A stretch of 64,000 bases of DNA from Clostridia bacterium (GTDB lineage Bacteria > Bacillota > Clostridia > Saccharofermentanales > Saccharofermentanaceae), in NCBI GenBank assembly GCA_016287245.1, contig JAEEWG010000002.1, positions 1 through 64,000 on the forward strand, in the 5' to 3' direction. This document shows, in pieces, positions 636 through 47,549 of the stretch. A model generated the notes under the pieces. The model made no database searches, had not been told where the DNA came from, and saw only the letters and a program-made list of their open reading frames with translations. Position numbers and translations under genes: made by a program. Each line of letters opens with the position of its first letter. Position 1 is the stretch's first letter.

Positions 636-3600
636 ATGGAATCTGAGAATCGCTCTCGTCGTGTTCGACTTATCAGCGTTATTCTGACGCTTGCCATTAT
701 TATCGGAGTGTTTCCGATTAGGAATGTCAAGGCCGACACCGGATCCACTAACGAAAATGATCTGGCGGTAACATACCACACTATCAGCGCGTGGGGTGGC
801 TTTACTCAGGTCGAGGTAACTGTTGAAAACAAAGGAAATACAGCGACAGATGGCTGGAGAATCGAATTCGAATACGATGATACGACCTCCATCTCCTCTA
901 TTTGGAATGCTATCGCGGCACCTTCCGACATTTCTTCACCCGAAAAGGTTACTGTGAGTAATGAGTCATACAACGGGGCTATTGTGCCCAATGGATCCAT
1001 CACGTTTGGTCTGATTGTACAGGGCGAAATGAATGAGATCCCGGATATACACGTTGTTCCGCAGCCTGAAACTCCTGTTGAAAACATCCAGAGTACATTA
1101 TTCCCTTATTCCATTTTCAGTCAGACAGACTTTGTGTTCCAAGGCTGGAAAAGCGCGATCTACGGAGATGTGTATACAGGAAACAATTTCGATTATCAGG
1201 GTTCTGAACTGAATCTCTACGGCGATCTGAATACTGTTGGTACCATTAACGCGAATGGATATCTCATTAATATCGGGAAAAGTAACGAAGGCGTGACACC
1301 AACAGTTGCGCCGGACTTTTCTGATGCGATTGAGGCACTTTCTGCCCGAATGACACCGGTAGATGCTTCCTCGTTTACATCGCAGGACCAGATTGTAGCA
1401 AATGGCTACTATTCTACCAATGGCGTTCTGACCATTTCCGGCACACAGTTTTCCGGCGATTGCGTGATCGTGGCAGATGGGGACATTACCTACAACGTGG
1501 ACGCTCTTTCCGGAGATGGCCGTGTTGTGCTTTATTCCAGGAATGGAAATATCACGATCAACGGCTCACAGATCACGATCAACGGGATCATCTATGCACC
1601 GAATGGAAGCGTGAACATCAATGCATACGATACGACCTTCAATGGAAGGATCATTGCAAATCGGTTCCAGTATAACGGTTCTATCTTCAATGCAACAGCC
1701 AGCGCAAGTGATCTTGAACTCCTTTACGAACTCCCCGTGATCCATATCACGGCAAATCCTACTCAGATAGAACTGGGTGAATCCGCAGTATTCACAATTG
1801 TCTGCGAAGATGAGGAGACTCCCTATGAGGTCAAGTTCCGTCTCAATGGTGAAGAAGTAGAAATCAGCGAAGACCTTGACTACACATTAACCCCGGACAA
1901 AGCCGGTGAGTATACGCTTGAGGCCTACGTCGAGCTCTCAACAGGCGAAGTCGTTCTCAATCAGGCAACTGTAGTAGTAACGATTCCAGCAACACCGACT
2001 CCTGTGGCTACAGATACACCCACACCGACAGAAGAACCTGTTCCTACTGTTACTGAAACACCGATACCCACCGAAACCCCAACTCCAACCGCAACCAGCA
2101 CCCCTGTTCCGACAGATACGCCTACGCCGGAGCCTACAAATACCTCCACTCCTGCACCTACGTCAACGCCTACATCTACCCCGACGAGCACACCTACCCC
2201 AATGGTAACTGTTACACCCTCGGCTACGCCTACTCCAACAGTAACAAGCTCGCCCACTCCGACAATCACTTCCAGCCCGACCAGTACGGCAACTCCCACA
2301 CCTACGAGTACGCCCACACCAACGAACACGCCAACACCTTTACCTACTTCTACGCCAATACCTACAGCTACACCTGTTGTGACTGCTACACCTTTCCCTG
2401 ACCCAACAGCGACGCCGGTACCAACAAGTACGCCTATCCCAACCCCGACTCTGACACCTGTTCCAGAAGATTCAGAGCTGTATTATGTGTTTTCGCAGGG
2501 CGATTCCCTTATCTGCGGATATCAGAATCCTTATCAACCAGATCAGTGGCGTCTATACGAAGTAGCAAGCATGACGGATACTTTGCTCAGATTGCATAAC
2601 AGTATCCTGTCAGACAATGCAAGAGCAATATTTCAGGGCGAGAGAAGCTTCAGCCCTGATTATTCGCTGTCCGGTCGTTTTACGGTCACAGTAGAAAGAT
2701 CCTCGAACCTTGAAGGACTTAACAATACTCTTGAGTTCTGTATTTATTCTGCCGATAACAGGTATTCTGAAGCCATAAGCATATGGTTAAATCCAAACAA
2801 CGGAAATATAAGTCTTATACAGGGCAGAGATAAAACGAATATCCTTGCAACTGGTAATTATGCCGCATTAATGAACAGGAATACATATAACGATATCTGG
2901 TACGACTATGACGGACAGACACATTTATTCAGTGTATATGCTGCCGAGTATTCCGTATTGGGCCATGTTACAAAACCTGAAGAACCGATTGTTTCCTGTG
3001 AGATAGATCTGTCAGATATATTTGCTGACAGTACCGGATTCAGCTGGATGATCGAATTGGATCACTGGTGGAATTCGACAGTGTTGGTACGCGGTGTAGA
3101 AATAGATCCGTATCCTGAAATACATACCAACGAGATAACACCTACTCCAACTCCAACTATAACGCCTGTATCTGAAGGTTTTAAATCTTTATCTCAGGGA
3201 AACAGTGAGTATGGTTATGAAGATCCTTTCGTAGAGGAAAACTGGAATTTTGTCGGAAGTTCACAATATGTAGATGGCGACAACATCGATCTTTTGAATC
3301 GTCAAAGCAATAGTAACTGCGGTTCTGCGTATCTCTCGTTTGCAGAAGATGCCGGGGAAGATTACGAGTTTTATACAAGATTCACTTTTTCCAGAGAAAA
3401 CGGGACTGAGAATGGGTTCGCATTTATTGTGGAGCCTGATAACGCTGAAGTCGGATTCTATGGAAGTAACGGTTATAACATGCACCAGAACAGCCTTATC
3501 GTGGAATTCGATTTTGATCCTCAGACTGACTATAGCAGGTTCAATGAATACGGAGACTTTGTTGAATATGATGAAAGCAATTCTCATGTAGGAATAATTA

Positions 3601-6600
3601 TCAATGGTAATGAAGTTCAACACTATGCAGTAGCAGATTATCCTGATATGAGAGAAACGGATAAGATAACCGATGCATGGATAGATTACGACGGAGAAAC
3701 ACTGCGTGTTTACGTATGTACGATAAATCAGTACGGACATATCTATAAGCATGAGAAACCTCTGATATCGCTCGATATAGACCTTGAAGAACTGTTTGAC
3801 GGAGAAACAAATCTTTATATGGGATTTGTATCCAAGGACGCAGACAAAGATACAGATCTTATACTTCACGGTTTTGAGATAGCACAAACTCCTTTTACAA
3901 CACTTCTTCCGTACGACTATCCTCTGGAAGAGCAGGACCGATATCAGATATTGTCCATGGGTGATGCAACATACGATTATATAAGACGCTATGACAGGAA
4001 CGATTGGACAACAACGGAATGCAGTCCGAGCATCAGAGAGAATGCGGTATCGCTTTCGGAACTCTTTGGCACGGACACAGCCGTTTATAGTAATAGGGTA
4101 AGTGAGTTTTCACAGGACTATTCATTCTCGGGCAGATTCACATATACCGTCAACTGCGGCCCCAATGACGGCAATTGTTCAAACATAACGTTTTTCAACC
4201 CTGATACGGGAAAAGAAAACGGCTCTTTTACCATACACATAGATATTCTGCCGAGCAGTAATCACTACTGGAAAGATCCATATGGACAGGGAGAATGGCA
4301 GTTCGGCACAGAACCTTCAAATTCTTCCATAGGCATCAGTCTTAATGGGGACATGATGCATGAATACTGCTACTCTGAATATCTTGGATTCAGAGAGTCC
4401 GGAAGTGTGCATGAGATATGGTTCGAATACGACGGACATGACAAGATATTGTATGTATATGTAGCGCCATACGATACAGAGGGTAATGTACAAAAACCGA
4501 ATACCCCAACCTTGATGCTTAATATCGATCTTGAAGAACTGTTTGGCGGAACACATCGGTTTGATATCGAATTAAGTGGAGACGGCGGATGGGATCCCGC
4601 AGAGTTTATCTATCGCGGCATAGAATTTGATCCGTATCCTGCAATACACGGAAGCCATGAAAGCGATATCGAGATACTCTCACCTGCAGACGAAGATGTA
4701 TTTACCATAGGTGAAGAGATTGATGTATTCGGACGGATAAACAGTATCGATGCCGATACATTAAGTATATTGCTCTTAAATGAGGAAGACGCAACTGTAT
4801 TCAGTGATGAAAGGGCACCTAACAGTTACTTCTCATCAATTACAACGATAGATACTGGCGAACTGACGACAGGAGATTACACGTTGTTTGTCTCAATCTC
4901 TTCCGAGGGCGAGGTTTTATCAAGCGAGTTAATTGAGATCACACTGATACCTGATCCAGTTATTGATGCAGATATTACAGGAAATACGCTTACCATTGAT
5001 GGTATGGATGTATTCGGGACGATTGATATAACAGAAGATTCGGAATACATACTCTATAGACATAACACAACGGATGATTTCTGGACCATTGTTTCTGAGG
5101 GAGAAGGAAATAAGAACGATGAGAGCATCGGTTTTATTGATTTCGATGATCTTCCTGATAGAAGTGTGTACTTAAGGCTTGTCATTACTCTTGAGAGCGG
5201 CAGAGTCATAACGGTGTACAAGACTTTCGAGTATGACAAAAATGCAATTCTATATCCGGATCAGCCGACTGCTAGCCCGACACCCACGGTAACACCGATA
5301 GAATATACTGACGAAGAACTGTTTGTAGATGTTGATAATGAACAGGAAGGCATGGAAGTATCCTTCGTAACTGATATTGTTGGCACGGTTTCCGGAACTC
5401 TTCTGGATCGATATACGTTTGAAGTGTATCCTGTGAATTCTGATGTGGCTGTTTATACAAGTACTGGAACTTCAGAAGTGATAGATGAAGCACTCGGAAC
5501 GCTGGATGCGACACTGCTCGTAAATGGTTACTATCTGGTCAAAGTGACGGCATATGCTTCTGACGGTTGTGGTCTCTATGACGAGGTCACAGTACTTGTC
5601 TGTGGAAACGCAAAGATCGGAAACTATTCTATATCGTTCAATGACCTTTCCACCGGCCTCAACAATTTTCCTCTCCAGATTTATAGAACGTATGATTCCA
5701 GGCGAAGAGACGAACTTGGAGATTTCGGATATGGCTGGGAAATGACAATTGGCGGCCCGAGAATATCCGTCTCAGGCGATCTTTCCTCTGGATGGGGATA
5801 TGAAAAACATACGACTGTCGCGGTTCCACTTAATTACTGGAAGCCCGAGCATGCTCATGAGATTTATATCGATTGGGGAAATGGGCACTCGGAGACATTC
5901 GAATTATCGCTTTCTCCTGAAAAATGGATTGACGCACCGATGGGAACAGTATCTGCATGTTTCATCAACAAGTCTGGGAAAAGCGATAAGCTGACGATTC
6001 TTGACAAATGTGAAGGCTTGTCCTATGAAAAACCTTCTAAAACAATTCTTGACAGTAGTTATTCTACCTGGAATCCTCAGAATTTCCTCCTTACAACCAG
6101 AGATGGTGTGAAGTATTACTTTAATCTGCATAGTGGTCTCTACAAGGTGGAAGATACATATGGACGGACTATCGAGATTACTGATGACGGTGTATTCTAT
6201 TCAGACGGATCCGGAATTGAGATAGTCCGGGACGAAGAAGGTAAGATCACCTCTATTTCTGATGGTACTCAAAGTGTATCGTACTCCTACGAGAATGGCG
6301 ATTTAACATCTTTAGTTGACCGCGCAAATAACACCACATCCTTCAGATACAAGACGGATCCGTCTCACTATCTGGAAGAGATTATCGATCCGCTGAATCA
6401 TCGTGTCGCAAAGAATATCTACGACGAGGATGGCCGCCTGATAAGTACGATTGACGCAGACGGAAACGAAATCAAGTTTGATCACGTCCTTGATAAAGAT
6501 CACAAGGTTGAGGTTGTGACAAATCGTTTAGGTTATTCAACCACATACGAATACGATGATTGGGGAAATGTCATTTCCGTTAAGGATGCTCTGGGAAGAA

Positions 6601-41726: not shown

Positions 41727-44618
41727 ATGAGAAATGTCGCTTTGAGACGCACACTCAAAGGAGCAGTGAGTTTTCTTCTTGCTGCAGTTGCGTGTGTGTC
41801 GGTTATCTCCGGAGTTTCCCTCTCTAAGAAGATCAATGCCAGCGCCAACGTATGTACCGTGACTTTTGATGCAAATGGTGGCATCAAAGGTGCGACGTGG
41901 ACAGATGTTGCGTACGTTCCTTATGGAACTGTCTGGAACTGGTGGCTGAATGAAGATTTCATCACACCTGCTCCCGGCAAAGTGTATGATGGTGTTGAGA
42001 TCGACGGAAAGAAATATGCTCCGGGTGCTTCTTACACAATCACGAAAGACATCACTGCCAAAGCACTCTGGAAGAGCACCGCGGCCGCCGCTCCTGTCAC
42101 AAAGCCGGGCACGGTCACGAACCTGAAGGCTGCAAACGCCGGCAAGAACAGGGTAAAGCTTACCTGGGACGCAGTCTCCGGTGCGGAAGGTTACCTCGTT
42201 TACGGCCAGAAGAACGGCACTTACGGTTATGTGGGCATGACCACACAGGGAACCACTTTCACAGATACCAAGGCTCTTGATTCGGAGTACAACTTCTACT
42301 GGGTATTCGCCTATGTAAAGACCACCGACGGCAAGATGCTCGCAGGCAACTGTGAAAAGTATGTGTATGCCAAGGGCGTATGTCCGGCAGTTCCCGATCT
42401 TAAGGCATCCTCCCAGGTCGGAAGCGTAAAGCTTTCCTGGTCTGCCTGCGTCGGTGCCGATGGATATCTCGTTTACGGTATCCGTCCGGGTCAGGAATAC
42501 AGCTATATCGGCATGACCACACAGGGTACCACATATACGGATACCAAGGCTTCCACATCTGACTGGACATTCTACTGGGTATTCGCGTACCACAAGGATG
42601 CCAGCGGCAAGATGCTCGTCGGCGGAACGGCCAAGTATGTATACGGCAGAGCCCAGAAGCAGACGACCGGCCAGTATCTCACATACAAGCAGTATGGTGC
42701 GAAGGGTGACGGAAAGACGGACGATTATGCTGCCATCGTTGCGACCCACGAAGCGGCCAACAAGATGGGTCTTCCGGTAAAGGCTGATCCGGGTGCCGTC
42801 TATTACATCGGCCACATGGATCCGAAGAACCCGAAGGGTGCTCTGATCATGACAGATACGGACTGGGGCGATGCCAAGTTCATCATCGACGACCAGAAGA
42901 TGCCGCTTGATAAGACAAACGATTCCGGCAAGAAGTATTCTTCCGAAGGCTCATGTTTCCTCTTCACCGTAGAGCCGAGCAAGGCAAGAGAGAAGAAGTG
43001 GCTCAACCCGACTCTGTACTGGAGAAAGACCAGCACCGGATATACCTACGTCAAGGCGGAGAATAAGAAGGACGGAGATATCAAGATCTACCTGGGTCTC
43101 GATCCGAATCTTTCCAAGTATAAAGAGTATGACGGAACCGGCGCTTCCAATGATCCGGTAACGGCTTCCACCATGAAGAACAAGACATTCAGCAAGAGCA
43201 CCACAAAGCTTCAGGGAACCTTCAACGAGAAAGCTCTCTATGTTCTTGAGACAGAGTCTGTTCTCAGATGGGGCAGACACGGTTCCGCGACAGCTTCCGG
43301 TGAAAGACGTGCACAGCGTGAGATCGTCATCGTCAATAAGGACGGTTCGATCGACAGCGCCACACCTCTTCAGTGGGACTGGAAAGAGATCAGCATGATC
43401 TACAAGTACTATATCGATGAGACACTTCTCACGGTAAAGGGCGGTACTTTTGAAACAAAGGCAAACATCCTGAACTCACAGCAGTATGTCAACAGAGGTA
43501 TCAATGTTGTCCGCTCCAATGTTCTCGTATCGGGCGTGAAGCACTATCTGACCGGTGAGGACAAGCAGTTCAACAACAACAGTAAGGTAGTCAACAGCGA
43601 GACCGGTGAGGTCACGTATCTGCCGAGACTGGGTGCTCCGTATCAGGGCTTCTTCCGTCTGGATCACTGCACAGACGTCACCCTGAAGGACTGCGTATTC
43701 AGCAACCACCTCCGTGTCTTCAACTACGGAGACAATACACACTCTACCGCTCCGTATGATTTCTATGCAGAGTATGCAGCTGATATCACTCTCGATCACT
43801 GCACATGCGCTGCTGACGGAAAAGATCTTACCGGTCCTGCCGATTCGACAGGTATCATGGATAAGAGCAGATGGGGCACAACAGGTACCAACTACTGCAA
43901 GAACATCACGGTGCAGAATGGTTCCAAACTGAGCAGGATCGACGCGCACATGGGTACATATAACCTGACCGTCAAGGATTCCACTCTCGGCTGCTATGGT
44001 GTAGCTGCCGTTGGTTTCGGAACGATGCGCCTCGAGAGAGTCACCTCTTATGCGAATTACTTCATCAGCCTGAGAAGAGACTACGGTTCTGCATGGTATG
44101 GCGATGTCGTGATCAAGGACTGCGTATGGAATATCGGTAAGAACTATACTCCTCAGCTGATCCTCGCGATCTACGATCCGCAGTATCTCTACGGTTATGA
44201 CACGATCACGCAGAACGGCAAGACCTATTACTGCCAGCTGCCGACGAAGATCACGATCGATGGATTCACACTCGATGCAAGTAGTCTTGCTGGCGGCGGA
44301 GACGGCGGAGAAGTCCTCTACGGAAACGCAAGAAGAGGCTTCGAGATCTACACGGCAGTCGTATCTGACGGCTCAAATGAGATCACGCAGGCATTCCTGA
44401 ATAATACGACGAAGTACAAGTATCCGATCAAGGTGACAGAAGAGATCATCGTTAAGAACTTCAAGGTCATCAAGCACAAGAACTTCGCAGACGCTACCTA
44501 CAAGGTCAAAGTCTCGATCAGAAATGCAGAGTGCACGGATATCAAGGACGAGTACTTCTTCAGCACAACGAAGTTCAACTACAACCAGAACTCTACGACG
44601 TACGAGGTCGCAAAATAA
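41727..44618 (+). CDS. large secreted protein: FN3 modules and pectate-lyase-like beta-helix
   Basis: A 963-residue exported protein. The signal peptide is about 1-37. A Listeria-Bacteroides-type repeat follows (CTVTFDANGG, about 43-110), then two FN3-like modules (about 127-218 and 219-312, both with GYLVYG and TTQGTT.TDTKA). From residue 315 to the end is a right-handed beta-helix that starts with YGAKGDGKTDDYAAI, the signature of the pectate-lyase-3 superfamily. The family includes polysaccharide lyases, hydrolases and epimerases; the catalytic residues and target glycan cannot be assigned by eye. There is no sortase motif or membrane tail, so it is likely secreted or held through the repeat modules. 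A strong terminator follows. Confidence 0.85.
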   Translation: MRNVALRRTLKGAVSFLLAAVACVSVISGVSLSKKINASANVCTVTFDANGGIKGATWTDVAYVPYGTVWNWWLNEDFITPAPGKVYDGVEIDGKKYAPGASYTITKDITAKALWKSTAAAAPVTKPGTVTNLKAANAGKNRVKLTWDAVSGAEGYLVYGQKNGTYGYVGMTTQGTTFTDTKALDSEYNFYWVFAYVKTTDGKMLAGNCEKYVYAKGVCPAVPDLKASSQVGSVKLSWSACVGADGYLVYGIRPGQEYSYIGMTTQGTTYTDTKASTSDWTFYWVFAYHKDASGKMLVGGTAKYVYGRAQKQTTGQYLTYKQYGAKGDGKTDDYAAIVATHEAANKMGLPVKADPGAVYYIGHMDPKNPKGALIMTDTDWGDAKFIIDDQKMPLDKTNDSGKKYSSEGSCFLFTVEPSKAREKKWLNPTLYWRKTSTGYTYVKAENKKDGDIKIYLGLDPNLSKYKEYDGTGASNDPVTASTMKNKTFSKSTTKLQGTFNEKALYVLETESVLRWGRHGSATASGERRAQREIVIVNKDGSIDSATPLQWDWKEISMIYKYYIDETLLTVKGGTFETKANILNSQQYVNRGINVVRSNVLVSGVKHYLTGEDKQFNNNSKVVNSETGEVTYLPRLGAPYQGFFRLDHCTDVTLKDCVFSNHLRVFNYGDNTHSTAPYDFYAEYAADITLDHCTCAADGKDLTGPADSTGIMDKSRWGTTGTNYCKNITVQNGSKLSRIDAHMGTYNLTVKDSTLGCYGVAAVGFGTMRLERVTSYANYFISLRRDYGSAWYGDVVIKDCVWNIGKNYTPQLILAIYDPQYLYGYDTITQNGKTYYCQLPTKITIDGFTLDASSLAGGGDGGEVLYGNARRGFEIYTAVVSDGSNEITQAFLNNTTKYKYPIKVTEEIIVKNFKVIKHKNFADATYKVKVSIRNAECTDIKDEYFFSTTKFNYNQNSTTYEVAK

Positions 44619-44648: not shown

Positions 44649-44692
44649 GAGGGCCTCAAAGTGAAACGACACTTTGAGGTCCTCTTCATTTT
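44649..44692 (+). terminator. rho-independent terminator after the beta-helix gene
   Basis: A 15-bp stem (GAGGGCCTCAAAGTG at 44649-44663, partner at 44670-44684, one G-U pair) with a 6-base loop, followed by TTCATTTT. It lies 31 bp past the stop. Confidence 0.85.
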
Positions 44693-44768: not shown

Positions 44769-45012
44769 TGCCGTATGAAATTCAAATATGAAAATCTATA
44801 CGTCAGTTTCGTATATGTATTGCCGTATAAAATCAAGATTTGAAAAATCATACGGCAAATTGGGTGACAAATTGCCGTATATAATTAGAAAAGTCACTTT
44901 TGTACGGCAAATGACAGAAAATCTGCCGTACAGAATTCAAAAATCCAAATCTATACGGCAGCAAGACAAAATCACTGCCGTATGAAATCGCATTTTGAAA
45001 AAATTTACGGCA
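44769..45012. repeat. array of five tandem 37-nt inverted-repeat units
   Basis: TGCCGTA and TACGGCA are paired with exactly 23 bases between them in five units: 44769-44805, 44821-44857, 44873-44909, 44924-44960 and 44976-45012. The right arm of the first has one change (TACGTCA). The period is 52, 52, 51 and 52 bp. The base pair outside the arms is T-A in units 2 and 3 and C-G in units 1, 4 and 5, so changes are compensated. The central 23 bases are AT-rich and loosely alike (TGAAAAATC, GAATTCAAA). Linkers between units 2-3, 3-4 and 4-5 share a GACA motif. It lies between a terminator and a kinase gene; no coding sequence is seen. Confidence 0.85.
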
Positions 45013-45176: not shown

Positions 45177-47549
45177 GTGGCGTCGAGGAACAAGCTTTCC
45201 ACCAAGATCATACTCATGGTAGAGGGGATCCTCCTGATCTCCAGTATCCTCTTTTGCACCGTTTCCGTGTATCGTGCCCGCGTCGGAATCCGAAAAGCCA
45301 TCCAGCAGAGAATGCTCGATATCGCCAACTGCGCATCGGGTTCTGTAAATGGAGACATGCTCAAAAACCTTTCCGAAGATACCGTCGGCAGTGCCGAGTA
45401 TAATGAAATCTATAGCACCCTGGCAGTCTTCCGCGATAATGTCGAACTCGAATATGTATACAGCATCAGGGAAGCAGGGGATAAGCACTTCATCTTCACG
45501 ATGGACCTCGACCTTGTAAGTCCGGCAAGCTATGGTGATACGGTCGAATATACCGAGGCGCTGGCCAGTGCCGGAAGAGGCAAGGCGGCTGTCGATGAGG
45601 TCCCTTATACAGACCAGTGGGGGAAGTTCTACAGTGCCTACAGTCCGGTCTTTGATTCCACCGGAAATGTCGCCGGCATCGTCGCGGTGGACTTCTCTGT
45701 CGAGTGGTTCGACGGACAGCTTTCCGAACAGACGAGATCCACGGTCGTAAGTTATGTGATCATCCTGATCGTCTCTCTCCTTTTGGCCGCCGTTCTTTCT
45801 CTTTTCACCGTGCGTCCTTTCGTACGGATGCAAAGTGAGCTTCTCGAGGAAAAAGTACGTGCCGAGAGCGCCAATCATGCCAAGAGCGACTTTCTGGCGA
45901 ACATGTCTCATGAGATAAGAACTCCGATCAACGCGGTCCTCGGCATGAATGAGATGATCCTTAGAGAGAGCAGAAAGTCGAAGGATCTTCCTGACGGGGA
46001 TACGGAGGCGGCAAAAGAATCGCTCCGGAACATCACCGTCTATGCAGGCGATGTGGAAAATGCCGGCCATAACCTTCTGGCGATCGTTAACGACATCCTC
46101 GATTTTTCCAAGATCGAAGCCGGCCGGCTGGACCTAGTGGAGGCGCCGTATCAGCTGAGCTCACTACTCAATAACATTAGTAACATGATGCTCTTCAAGG
46201 CACATGATAAGAAACTGGATTTCATCGTCGATGTGGACCAGACGCTCCCGGACGAGCTCTGCGGAGATGAGGTGCGCGTGCGCCAGATCCTGACGAACCT
46301 TCTTAACAACGCGGTCAAATATACCGAGAAGGGCTCGGTCAGCCTGATGGTTCGAGGAGAGAGGAAAGAGGACGGTACATTTATCCTGAAGGCATCCGTC
46401 AGCGATACGGGTATCGGCATCCGTCCGGAGGATAAAGAGAAACTCTTCACCAAGTTCGAGCGACTCGAGATGGATCGAAACAGCACGGTCGAAGGAACGG
46501 GATTAGGACTTGTCATCACCAAGCGTCTTCTGGACATGATGAACGGTACGATCTATGTCAAGAGTGATTACGGAAGAGGTTCGGTCTTTACCGTGACGAT
46601 CCCGCAGAAGATCTTAGAGGATGTGCCGGTGGGAGATTTCCAGAAGCGGTTCGAGACGAGTGTCCTTGAGGCCAGAAACTATAAAGAATCCTTCCGAGCA
46701 CCGCAGGCCCGTATCCTCATCGTGGACGATACGAGGATCAACCTGACGGTCGCCGTAAATCTTCTTAAGAATACGCAGATGCAGATCGACACGGCGACAA
46801 GCGGAGCCGAGGCGGTGGACTTTTCGGAGAAGAACGCGTACGACCTGATCCTTATGGACCAGCGCATGCCGGAAATGGAAGGCACGGAGGCATTGAAGAG
46901 GATTCGTGCCAGCGCATCCGGAGCAAGCCGGAATGCACCGGTCATCTGTCTGACGGCAGATGCCGTGGTCGGCGCGAAGGAGCGGTACTTATCGGAAGGG
47001 TTCTCGGATTATCTGACGAAGCCGATCGACAGTTATTCCCTGGAGAAGATGTTGATGAAATACCTTCCGAAAGATAAAGTTGAGAGCGTAAAAGAAGATA
47101 CCGAGGAAGTTTCTTCTGAAAAAGATCCGGAAGAGGCCGACTTCGCTATCCTGAAGAAAGCGGGTATCGAGACACGTACGGGACTTCTGTACTGCCAGAA
47201 CGATGAGGAATTCTACCGGTCGCTCCTCGCGGAATATGCGCACGGGGAAGCCGAAAAGACCGAGAGCCTGAAGAAGAGTTTCGAGGAAGAAAACTGGCAC
47301 GATTATGCGATCTATGTGCATGCCTTAAAGAGCACATCAAAGATGATTGGCGCCTCGGCACTTTCGAGCAGGGCCGCAAGACTGGAGTCGGCGGCAAACG
47401 AAGGGGACAGCGGGACGATCCGTGCGGAGCACGATGCCATGTTAAGAGAATACAAAGCAGTAGCCGAGGCGATCCTTTCGATCAGCCCGGATTCCGGTCC
47501 GGAGGATGAGGAAAGCGACATTTTCGAATTCCTCCCGGATCCTGACTGA
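45177..47549 (+). CDS. hybrid sensor histidine kinase with receiver and HPt domains
   Basis: About 790 residues from a GTG at 45177. The frame stays open from a TTG at 45132, and the ribosome site GGGGG is rather distant, so the start is uncertain. TM1 is about 11-30, an extracytoplasmic sensor about 35-185, TM2 about 190-210. The kinase core has the H-box FLANMSHEIRTPINAVLGMN (His near 245) and G-boxes SDTGIGI and GTGLGL. A receiver follows (LILMDQRMPEME, Asp near 561), and the C-terminal HPt has VHALKSTSKMIGA (His near 715). All relay residues are present, so a full His-Asp-His phosphorelay is possible. The final regulator is not adjacent. It is the gene directly downstream of the hairpin array. 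Confidence 0.85.
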   Translation: MASRNKLSTKIILMVEGILLISSILFCTVSVYRARVGIRKAIQQRMLDIANCASGSVNGDMLKNLSEDTVGSAEYNEIYSTLAVFRDNVELEYVYSIREAGDKHFIFTMDLDLVSPASYGDTVEYTEALASAGRGKAAVDEVPYTDQWGKFYSAYSPVFDSTGNVAGIVAVDFSVEWFDGQLSEQTRSTVVSYVIILIVSLLLAAVLSLFTVRPFVRMQSELLEEKVRAESANHAKSDFLANMSHEIRTPINAVLGMNEMILRESRKSKDLPDGDTEAAKESLRNITVYAGDVENAGHNLLAIVNDILDFSKIEAGRLDLVEAPYQLSSLLNNISNMMLFKAHDKKLDFIVDVDQTLPDELCGDEVRVRQILTNLLNNAVKYTEKGSVSLMVRGERKEDGTFILKASVSDTGIGIRPEDKEKLFTKFERLEMDRNSTVEGTGLGLVITKRLLDMMNGTIYVKSDYGRGSVFTVTIPQKILEDVPVGDFQKRFETSVLEARNYKESFRAPQARILIVDDTRINLTVAVNLLKNTQMQIDTATSGAEAVDFSEKNAYDLILMDQRMPEMEGTEALKRIRASASGASRNAPVICLTADAVVGAKERYLSEGFSDYLTKPIDSYSLEKMLMKYLPKDKVESVKEDTEEVSSEKDPEEADFAILKKAGIETRTGLLYCQNDEEFYRSLLAEYAHGEAEKTESLKKSFEEENWHDYAIYVHALKSTSKMIGASALSSRAARLESAANEGDSGTIRAEHDAMLREYKAVAEAILSISPDSGPEDEESDIFEFLPDPD

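What the first reader, a model, noticed from the sequence alone, without database searches (positions are those of the whole stretch)
44769..45012. Five tandem 37-nt inverted-repeat units in helical register with covarying arms
Each unit is TGCCGTA, 23 bases, TACGGCA, always 37 nt, repeated at 52, 52, 51 and 52 bp, almost exactly five helical turns. The bases just outside the arms change together (T-A in two units, C-G in three), so pairing is being kept. Alternatively, right arm and next left arm form tighter hairpins with 13-15-base loops that contain a GACA motif. No gene, CRISPR or known element explains it. It lies in the leader of a hybrid kinase, downstream of a terminator. It could be a multi-hairpin RNA, a cooperative protein-binding array on one DNA face, or a tandem-duplicated mobile hairpin. 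Fixed length favours a structural role.
Basis: partly seen in the sequence, partly recalled or inferred. Interest (0 to 1): 0.78.

Follow-up and report, generated by a model that had tools for sequence, protein, structure and literature searches.

The report
Nuclease-linked, helically phased repeat array
The five hairpin-like units are one nuclease-less copy of a dispersed DNA element, six pairs of short recognition words on one face of the helix, and relatives of this element sit next to a gene for an undescribed nuclease whose sequence changes together with the word, which points to an unrecognised two-part mobile DNA system in gut Clostridia.

Summary
The array is real: five TGCCGTA-N23-TACGGCA units, 37 nt each, spaced 52/52/51/52. 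It is not local. The same genome has about 14 arrays with this word and a sister species has 15, nearly always with exactly six units; the window copy lost one. The claimed covariation fails: in 105 distinct units, 31 arm changes are one-sided and none compensatory, while arms stay 96% identical against 52% for interiors. Selection is on short words in duplex DNA, not on a hairpin. An unbiased scan of related genomes found many arrays of the same build with different words. Their periods fall at 43, 50-55, 60-64 or 70-74 bp, steps of about one helical turn. Next to these arrays lies a gene family with an invariant PD-(D/E)XK-like motif: 39 of 53 gene copies have an array within 520 bp, against 3.5% of ordinary genes, and closely related nucleases share the word. 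The window array is best read as a nuclease-less satellite of the TGCCGTA nuclease on contig C4 of its own genome. This resembles REP/RAYT in logic but fails its membership tests. Binding, cleavage and the copying mechanism are inferred, not shown.

The parts
44769..44805 (.). Unit 1, TGCCGTA-N23-TACGTCA (one changed base in the right arm). Compared with the six-unit ortholog, the missing unit lay just after this one.
44821..44857 (.). Unit 2, TGCCGTA-N23-TACGGCA
44873..44909 (.). Unit 3, TGCCGTA-N23-TACGGCA
44924..44960 (.). Unit 4, TGCCGTA-N23-TACGGCA
44976..45012 (.). Unit 5, TGCCGTA-N23-TACGGCA
44793..44806 (.). Approximate point where one 52-bp unit plus spacer is missing: two copies of AAATCTATACGGCAG that flank one unit in the sister genome are merged here.
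   Evidence: side-by-side sequences of G000 and G009
44649..44684 (+). Terminator-like hairpin of the upstream gene. Not part of the repeat, but typical of where such arrays sit.
   Evidence: inverted repeat I3
41727..44618 (+). Upstream gene, 963 aa secreted right-handed-repeat-type protein by eye; only a weak GH85_C match in Pfam. Flanking gene, not part of the system.
45177..47549 (+). Downstream hybrid histidine kinase (HisKA, HATPase_c, Response_reg, Hpt). Flanking gene, not part of the system; start codon uncertain (45132 or 45177).

Best explanation
The window array is a non-autonomous copy of a two-part genetic element. Part one is an array of about 12 half-sites (here TGCCGTA) in alternating orientation, set near 3 and 2 helical turns apart so that all face one side of the DNA. 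Part two is a 250-300 aa nuclease with an invariant PD-(D/E)XK-like motif, encoded next to one copy of the array; for TGCCGTA this is G000:C4:300-1091 and its ortholog G009:C35:77807-78595. Shown here: the geometry, the constraint on word sequence, the physical linkage of nuclease and array, the shared words of closely related nucleases, the dispersal of nuclease-less arrays, and empty sites. Inferred: the nuclease (perhaps through its N-terminal half) binds the word as an ordered row of dimers, and its cutting, followed by repair, copies array-containing segments to sites downstream of genes, often at terminators. The window copy would then be a satellite that lost one unit by deletion between 15-bp repeats.
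For: Genome-wide family: 41 exact units in G000, 0 in the backwards control, with orthologs in G009. Six units in nearly all intact copies. Arms 96% identical within arrays against 52% for interiors; 31 one-sided arm changes, 0 compensatory. Arms differ at 4 of 502 positions between orthologs, against 26 of 827 for unit interiors, leaving out the pair L008/L074 with unequal unit numbers. Different words in relatives: GATAAGATC in G013, found by an unbiased scan of 400 kb. Quantised periods and half-site spacings near 30 and 22 bp. Nuclease family in 23 of 23 genus genomes; 39 of 53 genes have an array within 520 bp, mostly just after the stop codon, against 26 of 739 ordinary genes. At 75% or more protein identity the words match in 10 of 10 pairs, below 50% almost never; Mantel p = 0.001. 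Candidate catalytic residues invariant in 30 members; PADLOC C-terminal PDC-S68 nuclease domain, E down to 9e-28. Empty sites in G000 for arrays present in G009.
Against: No binding, cleavage or transposition was observed. No clear target-site duplication at the empty sites; only L071 and L072 have clean junctions, and both show imperfect direct repeats of terminator sequence. 14 of 53 nuclease genes have no array detected within 520 bp (some lie at contig ends). The word correlation is strong only among close relatives, so shared descent of linked DNA could give part of it without direct recognition. The single-sequence structure prediction failed (mean pLDDT 46.9), so the nuclease fold rests on motif and profile matches.
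Confidence: 0.72

Rival explanations
1. A BIME-like host element: the arrays are chromosome-organising or supercoiling-related sites between convergent genes, bound by an unrelated host protein; the nuclease gene is only a frequent neighbour.
For: 11 of 17 TGCCGTA loci with both flanks known lie between convergent genes, against 79 of 645 gene pairs overall (12%). Arrays stay in place between species with constrained arms.
Against: Words differ between species and even within one genome (G098, G013), unusual for a general host factor. The nuclease association (74% against 3.5%) and word sharing are hard to explain.
Confidence: 0.13
2. The nuclease-array pair is an anti-phage defence or autoregulated toxin-like unit: the array next to the gene is an operator or decoy that holds the nuclease, and the dispersed arrays are further decoys.
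For: The nuclease domain is related to the C-terminal domain of candidate defence proteins PDC-S68/S69. Arrays lie next to the gene, sometimes upstream.
Against: Most adjacent arrays are downstream of the gene, not at its promoter. Dispersal into terminators is not expected of an operator. No partner gene is evident.
Confidence: 0.1
3. A transcribed multi-hairpin RNA whose helices are selected.
For: RNA folding energies are far below dinucleotide shuffles (z about -7 to -14).
Against: The energy follows from the inverted repeats alone and is similar on both strands. No compensatory changes in 105 units, no covariation, no Rfam match.
Confidence: 0.03
4. An ordinary decayed minisatellite.
For: Some 61-62 bp arrays are nearly homogeneous tandem repeats (L147, L150).
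Against: Interiors are 52% identical while arms are 96% identical; six units at many loci; different words with the same quantised spacing.
Confidence: 0.02

Closest known systems
REP/REPIN/BIME elements with RAYT (TnpA-REP) transposases (PMC2817692, PMC3116915)
   Same: Palindromic, extragenic, dispersed repeats whose sequence differs between species and follows a trans-acting, gene-linked DNA enzyme; non-autonomous copies outnumber the enzyme gene; often between convergent genes; targets for IS insertion.
   Different: Enzyme is a PD-(D/E)XK-like nuclease, not a Y1/HUH transposase. No GTAG or CGTC tag. The unit is a pair of half-sites around a free 23-nt interior, usually six units, with helical spacing. 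About 15 arrays per genome, not hundreds of single hairpins.
BIME-2 arrays that bind DNA gyrase and IHF (reviewed in PMC2817692 and PMC1525189)
   Same: Tandem arrays of alternately oriented palindromic sequence at gene ends.
   Different: No REP consensus. Spacing quantised to helical turns, and arm words differ between close species.
REP-targeting insertion sequences, including IS256-family ISRm5 (PMC1525189)
   Same: An IS256-family element (Transposase_mut) repeatedly lands inside these arrays.
   Different: It is a parasite of the arrays here, not their mover: its ends and 9-bp duplications differ.
PDC-S68/S69 and HEAT_CxxC_PDDEXK candidate defence nucleases (PADLOC)
   Same: C-terminal nuclease domain is homologous.
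   Different: Here it is a small stand-alone protein of 250-300 aa with a different N-terminal half, linked to a DNA array.
CRISPR arrays
   Same: Regular spacing and a nearby nuclease gene.
   Different: Short inverted words instead of long identical direct repeats; no Cas gene seen in the nearby genes examined; number of units nearly fixed.

Membership tests
REP/BIME with RAYT | Y1 (RAYT) transposase in the repeat-bearing genome | tested here: not met
   PF01797 found in 4 of 23 genus genomes; absent from array-bearing G000, G013 and G020
REP/BIME with RAYT | GTAG- or CGTC-tagged 20-40 nt self-complementary hairpin | tested here: not met
   No such tag in the unit consensus; pairing beyond the 7-bp arms is not kept
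REP/BIME with RAYT | Dispersed, extragenic, species-specific repeats, often at convergent gene ends | tested here: met
MITE of a DDE transposon | Terminal inverted repeats shared with a transposase gene and a fixed target-site duplication | tested here: not met
   No clear duplication at the two clean empty-site junctions, L071 and L072; the only IS examined (IS256 type) has different ends and inserts into the arrays
CRISPR | Long identical direct repeats with unique spacers and Cas genes | tested here: not met
   The constant part is a 7-bp inverted word. Cas genes were not searched for genome-wide
Structured non-coding RNA | Compensatory base-pair changes | tested here: not met
   0 compensatory and 31 one-sided changes; Rfam negative
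PD-(D/E)XK nuclease superfamily (linked protein) | Conserved acidic and lysine active-site residues | tested here: met
   E161, D192, E207 and K224 invariant in 30 members; PADLOC PDC-S68 C-terminal domain. Assignment as active site is by motif
PD-(D/E)XK nuclease superfamily (linked protein) | Restriction-endonuclease-like fold | tested here: inconclusive
   Single-sequence AlphaFold model too poor; no homolog among solved structures by sequence
Helically phased DNA-binding array | Half-sites at whole helical turns | tested here: met
   Half-site spacings near 30 and 22 bp; periods 43, 50-55, 60-64, 70-74
Helically phased DNA-binding array | A protein binds it | not testable with these tools
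   Needs a binding experiment

The most novel reading that the evidence does not exclude
An undescribed class of bacterial mobile DNA: a small PD-(D/E)XK nuclease that recognises a short word repeated as a one-sided, helically phased array, changes its word as it diverges, and spreads nuclease-less satellite arrays through the host genome, evolved independently of REP/RAYT.
Probability: 0.55. Interest if true: 0.93.

Novelty: categorically new. Interest (0 to 1): 0.86.

Why it matters
If right, REP/RAYT is not the only case in which bacteria keep a tethered DNA enzyme with a dispersed cloud of its recognition sites: the same logic would have arisen with a different enzyme and a different DNA architecture. 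The word changes between close species while the spacing is kept, so dozens of natural nuclease-word pairs are available to learn how such a nuclease reads DNA. The system also accounts for repeats found at broken contig ends in these genomes.

Tried and rejected
Rfam on the window, phage and plasmid DNA and virus contigs: no match. RNA structure: rejected by the absence of compensatory change. RAYT: absent from most array-bearing genomes. IS256 as mover: rejected, it inserts into arrays with its own 9-bp duplications. A scan of all species genomes with the TGCCGTA pattern found it only in MAGs RGIG7838 and RGIG7868, apart from isolated single matches. Two region requests failed on a length limit. 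Single-sequence structure model too poor to search with. PDB profile search gave only coiled-coil noise. A relative of the nuclease in viral contigs was not found. Human-gut contig MT839528 carries a full-length 26% relative but no clear array. Literature searches found no description of this pairing, but only open-access papers were searchable.

Full report
What was checked. The five units are present at the stated coordinates and spacing and do not arise by chance: 0 matches in dinucleotide shuffles against 4 exact units. No Rfam family matches the window. The array lies after a terminator-like hairpin (44649-44684) and before a hybrid histidine kinase.

It is a genome-wide family. The window's own genome (G000) has 41 exact units and none in the backwards control, in about 14 places. 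A sister species (G009, identical in contig lengths to MAG RGIG7838 from water-buffalo reticulum) has 15 arrays, and G020 (RGIG7868) one short array; none of the other 20 genus genomes has one. Nearly all intact arrays have exactly six units with spacers of about 15, 14, 15, 14, 15 nt and unit-specific interiors in a fixed order. The ortholog of the window array in G009 has six units; the window copy has lost one unit, as expected from deletion between two copies of a 15-bp sequence. So 'five' is a local accident.

Selection is on words, not on pairing. Within arrays, arms are 96% identical and interiors 52%. In 105 distinct units there are 31 one-sided arm changes and no compensatory one. Interior pairs and the outer flanking bases show no clear covariation (outer pair p = 0.68). 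Between orthologous arrays of the two species, leaving out the pair with unequal unit numbers (L008/L074), arms differ at 4 of 502 positions and the rest of the unit at 26 of 827. Both strands fold far below shuffles because of the inverted repeats themselves. This argues for a protein that reads a short word in duplex DNA.

Relatives use other words but keep the build. An unbiased scan of 400 kb of G013, which lacks TGCCGTA arrays, found four arrays of GATAAGATC-N22-GATCTTATC, each of six units at exactly 53 bp. This word occurs in at least seven places in G013, once in G003, and in no other genus genome. Scans of about 2 Mb, allowing any period from 26 to 150 bp, found non-coding arrays only near 51-54 and 61-63 bp, apart from one pair at 37 bp. 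Arrays beside nuclease genes add 43 and 70-74 bp, with one value of 58 and nothing at 44-49, 56-57 or 65-69. In the 52-53 bp class, half-site centres alternate by about 30 and 22 bp, near 3 and 2 turns, and exceptions differ by about a turn. A second genus (G098) has the same build. Several arrays with different words occupy the same orthologous gene ends in different species.

A gene family accompanies the arrays. Looking at neighbours of arrays in several species showed a protein with an invariant R-S-K-S-E ... DF ... EH.G ... K pattern. It has no Pfam or NCBIfam match, but its C-terminal half matches the nuclease domain of PADLOC candidate defence proteins PDC-S68/S69. It is present in all 23 genus genomes, 1 to 10 copies each. 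Of 53 distinct gene copies, 39 have an array of at least four alternating arms within 520 bp, most often 4-80 bp after the stop codon. The same test on 739 predicted genes from stretches mostly not chosen for arrays gives 26 (3.5%), and several of those are the same real arrays counted from both sides. Some genes were fetched because of array-bearing loci, so 74% is not a blind estimate; but most copies were fetched only through the protein search, and the effect is far larger than that bias could give.

Word and nuclease change together. All 10 pairs of nucleases with at least 75% identity share the word; 15% do at 50-75%, and 1-3% below that. The correlation is modest but significant (Mantel rho 0.22, p = 0.001; 0.24 for the N-terminal half). 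For TGCCGTA, the nuclease lies beside one array in G000 (C4:300-1091) and G009 (C35:77807-78595); the other arrays, including the window's, have no nuclease nearby. In G013 a nuclease lies beside one GATAAGATC array (C18:379054-379821) and not beside the others. This is the pattern of one enzyme with satellites.

Mobility. Five G009 arrays have array-free sites in G000. Two have clean junctions: L072 and L071 sit in the loop of a GGCGCTGTCTCA terminator hairpin that is intact in G000. No simple target-site duplication is visible. A few terminators with this stem occur in G000, and most are array sites or empty sites of G009 arrays. 11 of 17 TGCCGTA loci lie between convergent genes, against 12% of gene pairs.

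What is inferred. That the nuclease binds the word, that twelve half-sites on one face load an ordered row of nuclease, and that cutting and repair copy the array. The alternatives (host nucleoid element, defence or autoregulation, RNA, minisatellite) are listed with their tests.

Comparison with the known. The nearest relative in logic is REP/RAYT (PMC2817692, PMC3116915). Membership fails on the transposase and the sequence tag. REPs also attract insertion sequences, among them the IS256-family ISRm5 (PMC1525189); likewise, four of seven right ends of an IS256-family element in G000 lie inside TGCCGTA arrays, which make up roughly 0.15% of the genome. I found no report of a PD-(D/E)XK nuclease paired with such arrays; only open-access literature could be searched.

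Limits. The nuclease fold rests on motif and profile evidence because the structure model was poor.

Noticed in passing
G000 C15/C38, C4/C43, C7/C18, C30 (L006/L011, L003/L013, L096/L007, L010); G009 L077: An IS256-family element (Transposase_mut, 9-bp duplications such as CGTATGAAA and GAAAATCCA) has repeatedly inserted inside or beside the arrays; its ends (TCCGTATAA) resemble the array word.
   Followed up: partly
G000:C34:42098, C2:45886, C45:4152, C9:6372, C38:340: A dispersed terminator stem GGCGCTGTCTCA...TGAGACAGCGCC marks many array sites and empty sites.
   Followed up: partly
L098 (G009:C29:24000-25200) and L144 (G000:C1:84001-104000): A second array family with word CATGGG/CCCATG: one array beside a nuclease gene in G000 (C1:87126-87911), another without nuclease beside a single TGCCGTA unit in G009.
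   Followed up: partly
L097 (G000:C44:22800-23770): Another palindromic sequence with arms GGGCCGTAAAATC/AGATTTACGGCCT interrupted by the IS256-family element.
   Followed up: no
L147, L149, L150, L152, L157, L158, L160: A divergent nuclease subfamily (MIAAKLYKLA...) between an ftsX-like permease gene and a pyrophosphatase-like gene, each with its own 61-62 bp array.
   Followed up: partly
MT839528.1 (L258), 3060-3797: A human-gut contig labelled Bacteriophage sp. encodes a full-length 26% relative of the nuclease, followed by irregular GTTGC/GCAAC repeats.
   Followed up: partly
window 2295-2339: Short 18-bp tandem repeat, 2.5 copies, the only array reported by Tandem Repeats Finder in the window.
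   Followed up: no
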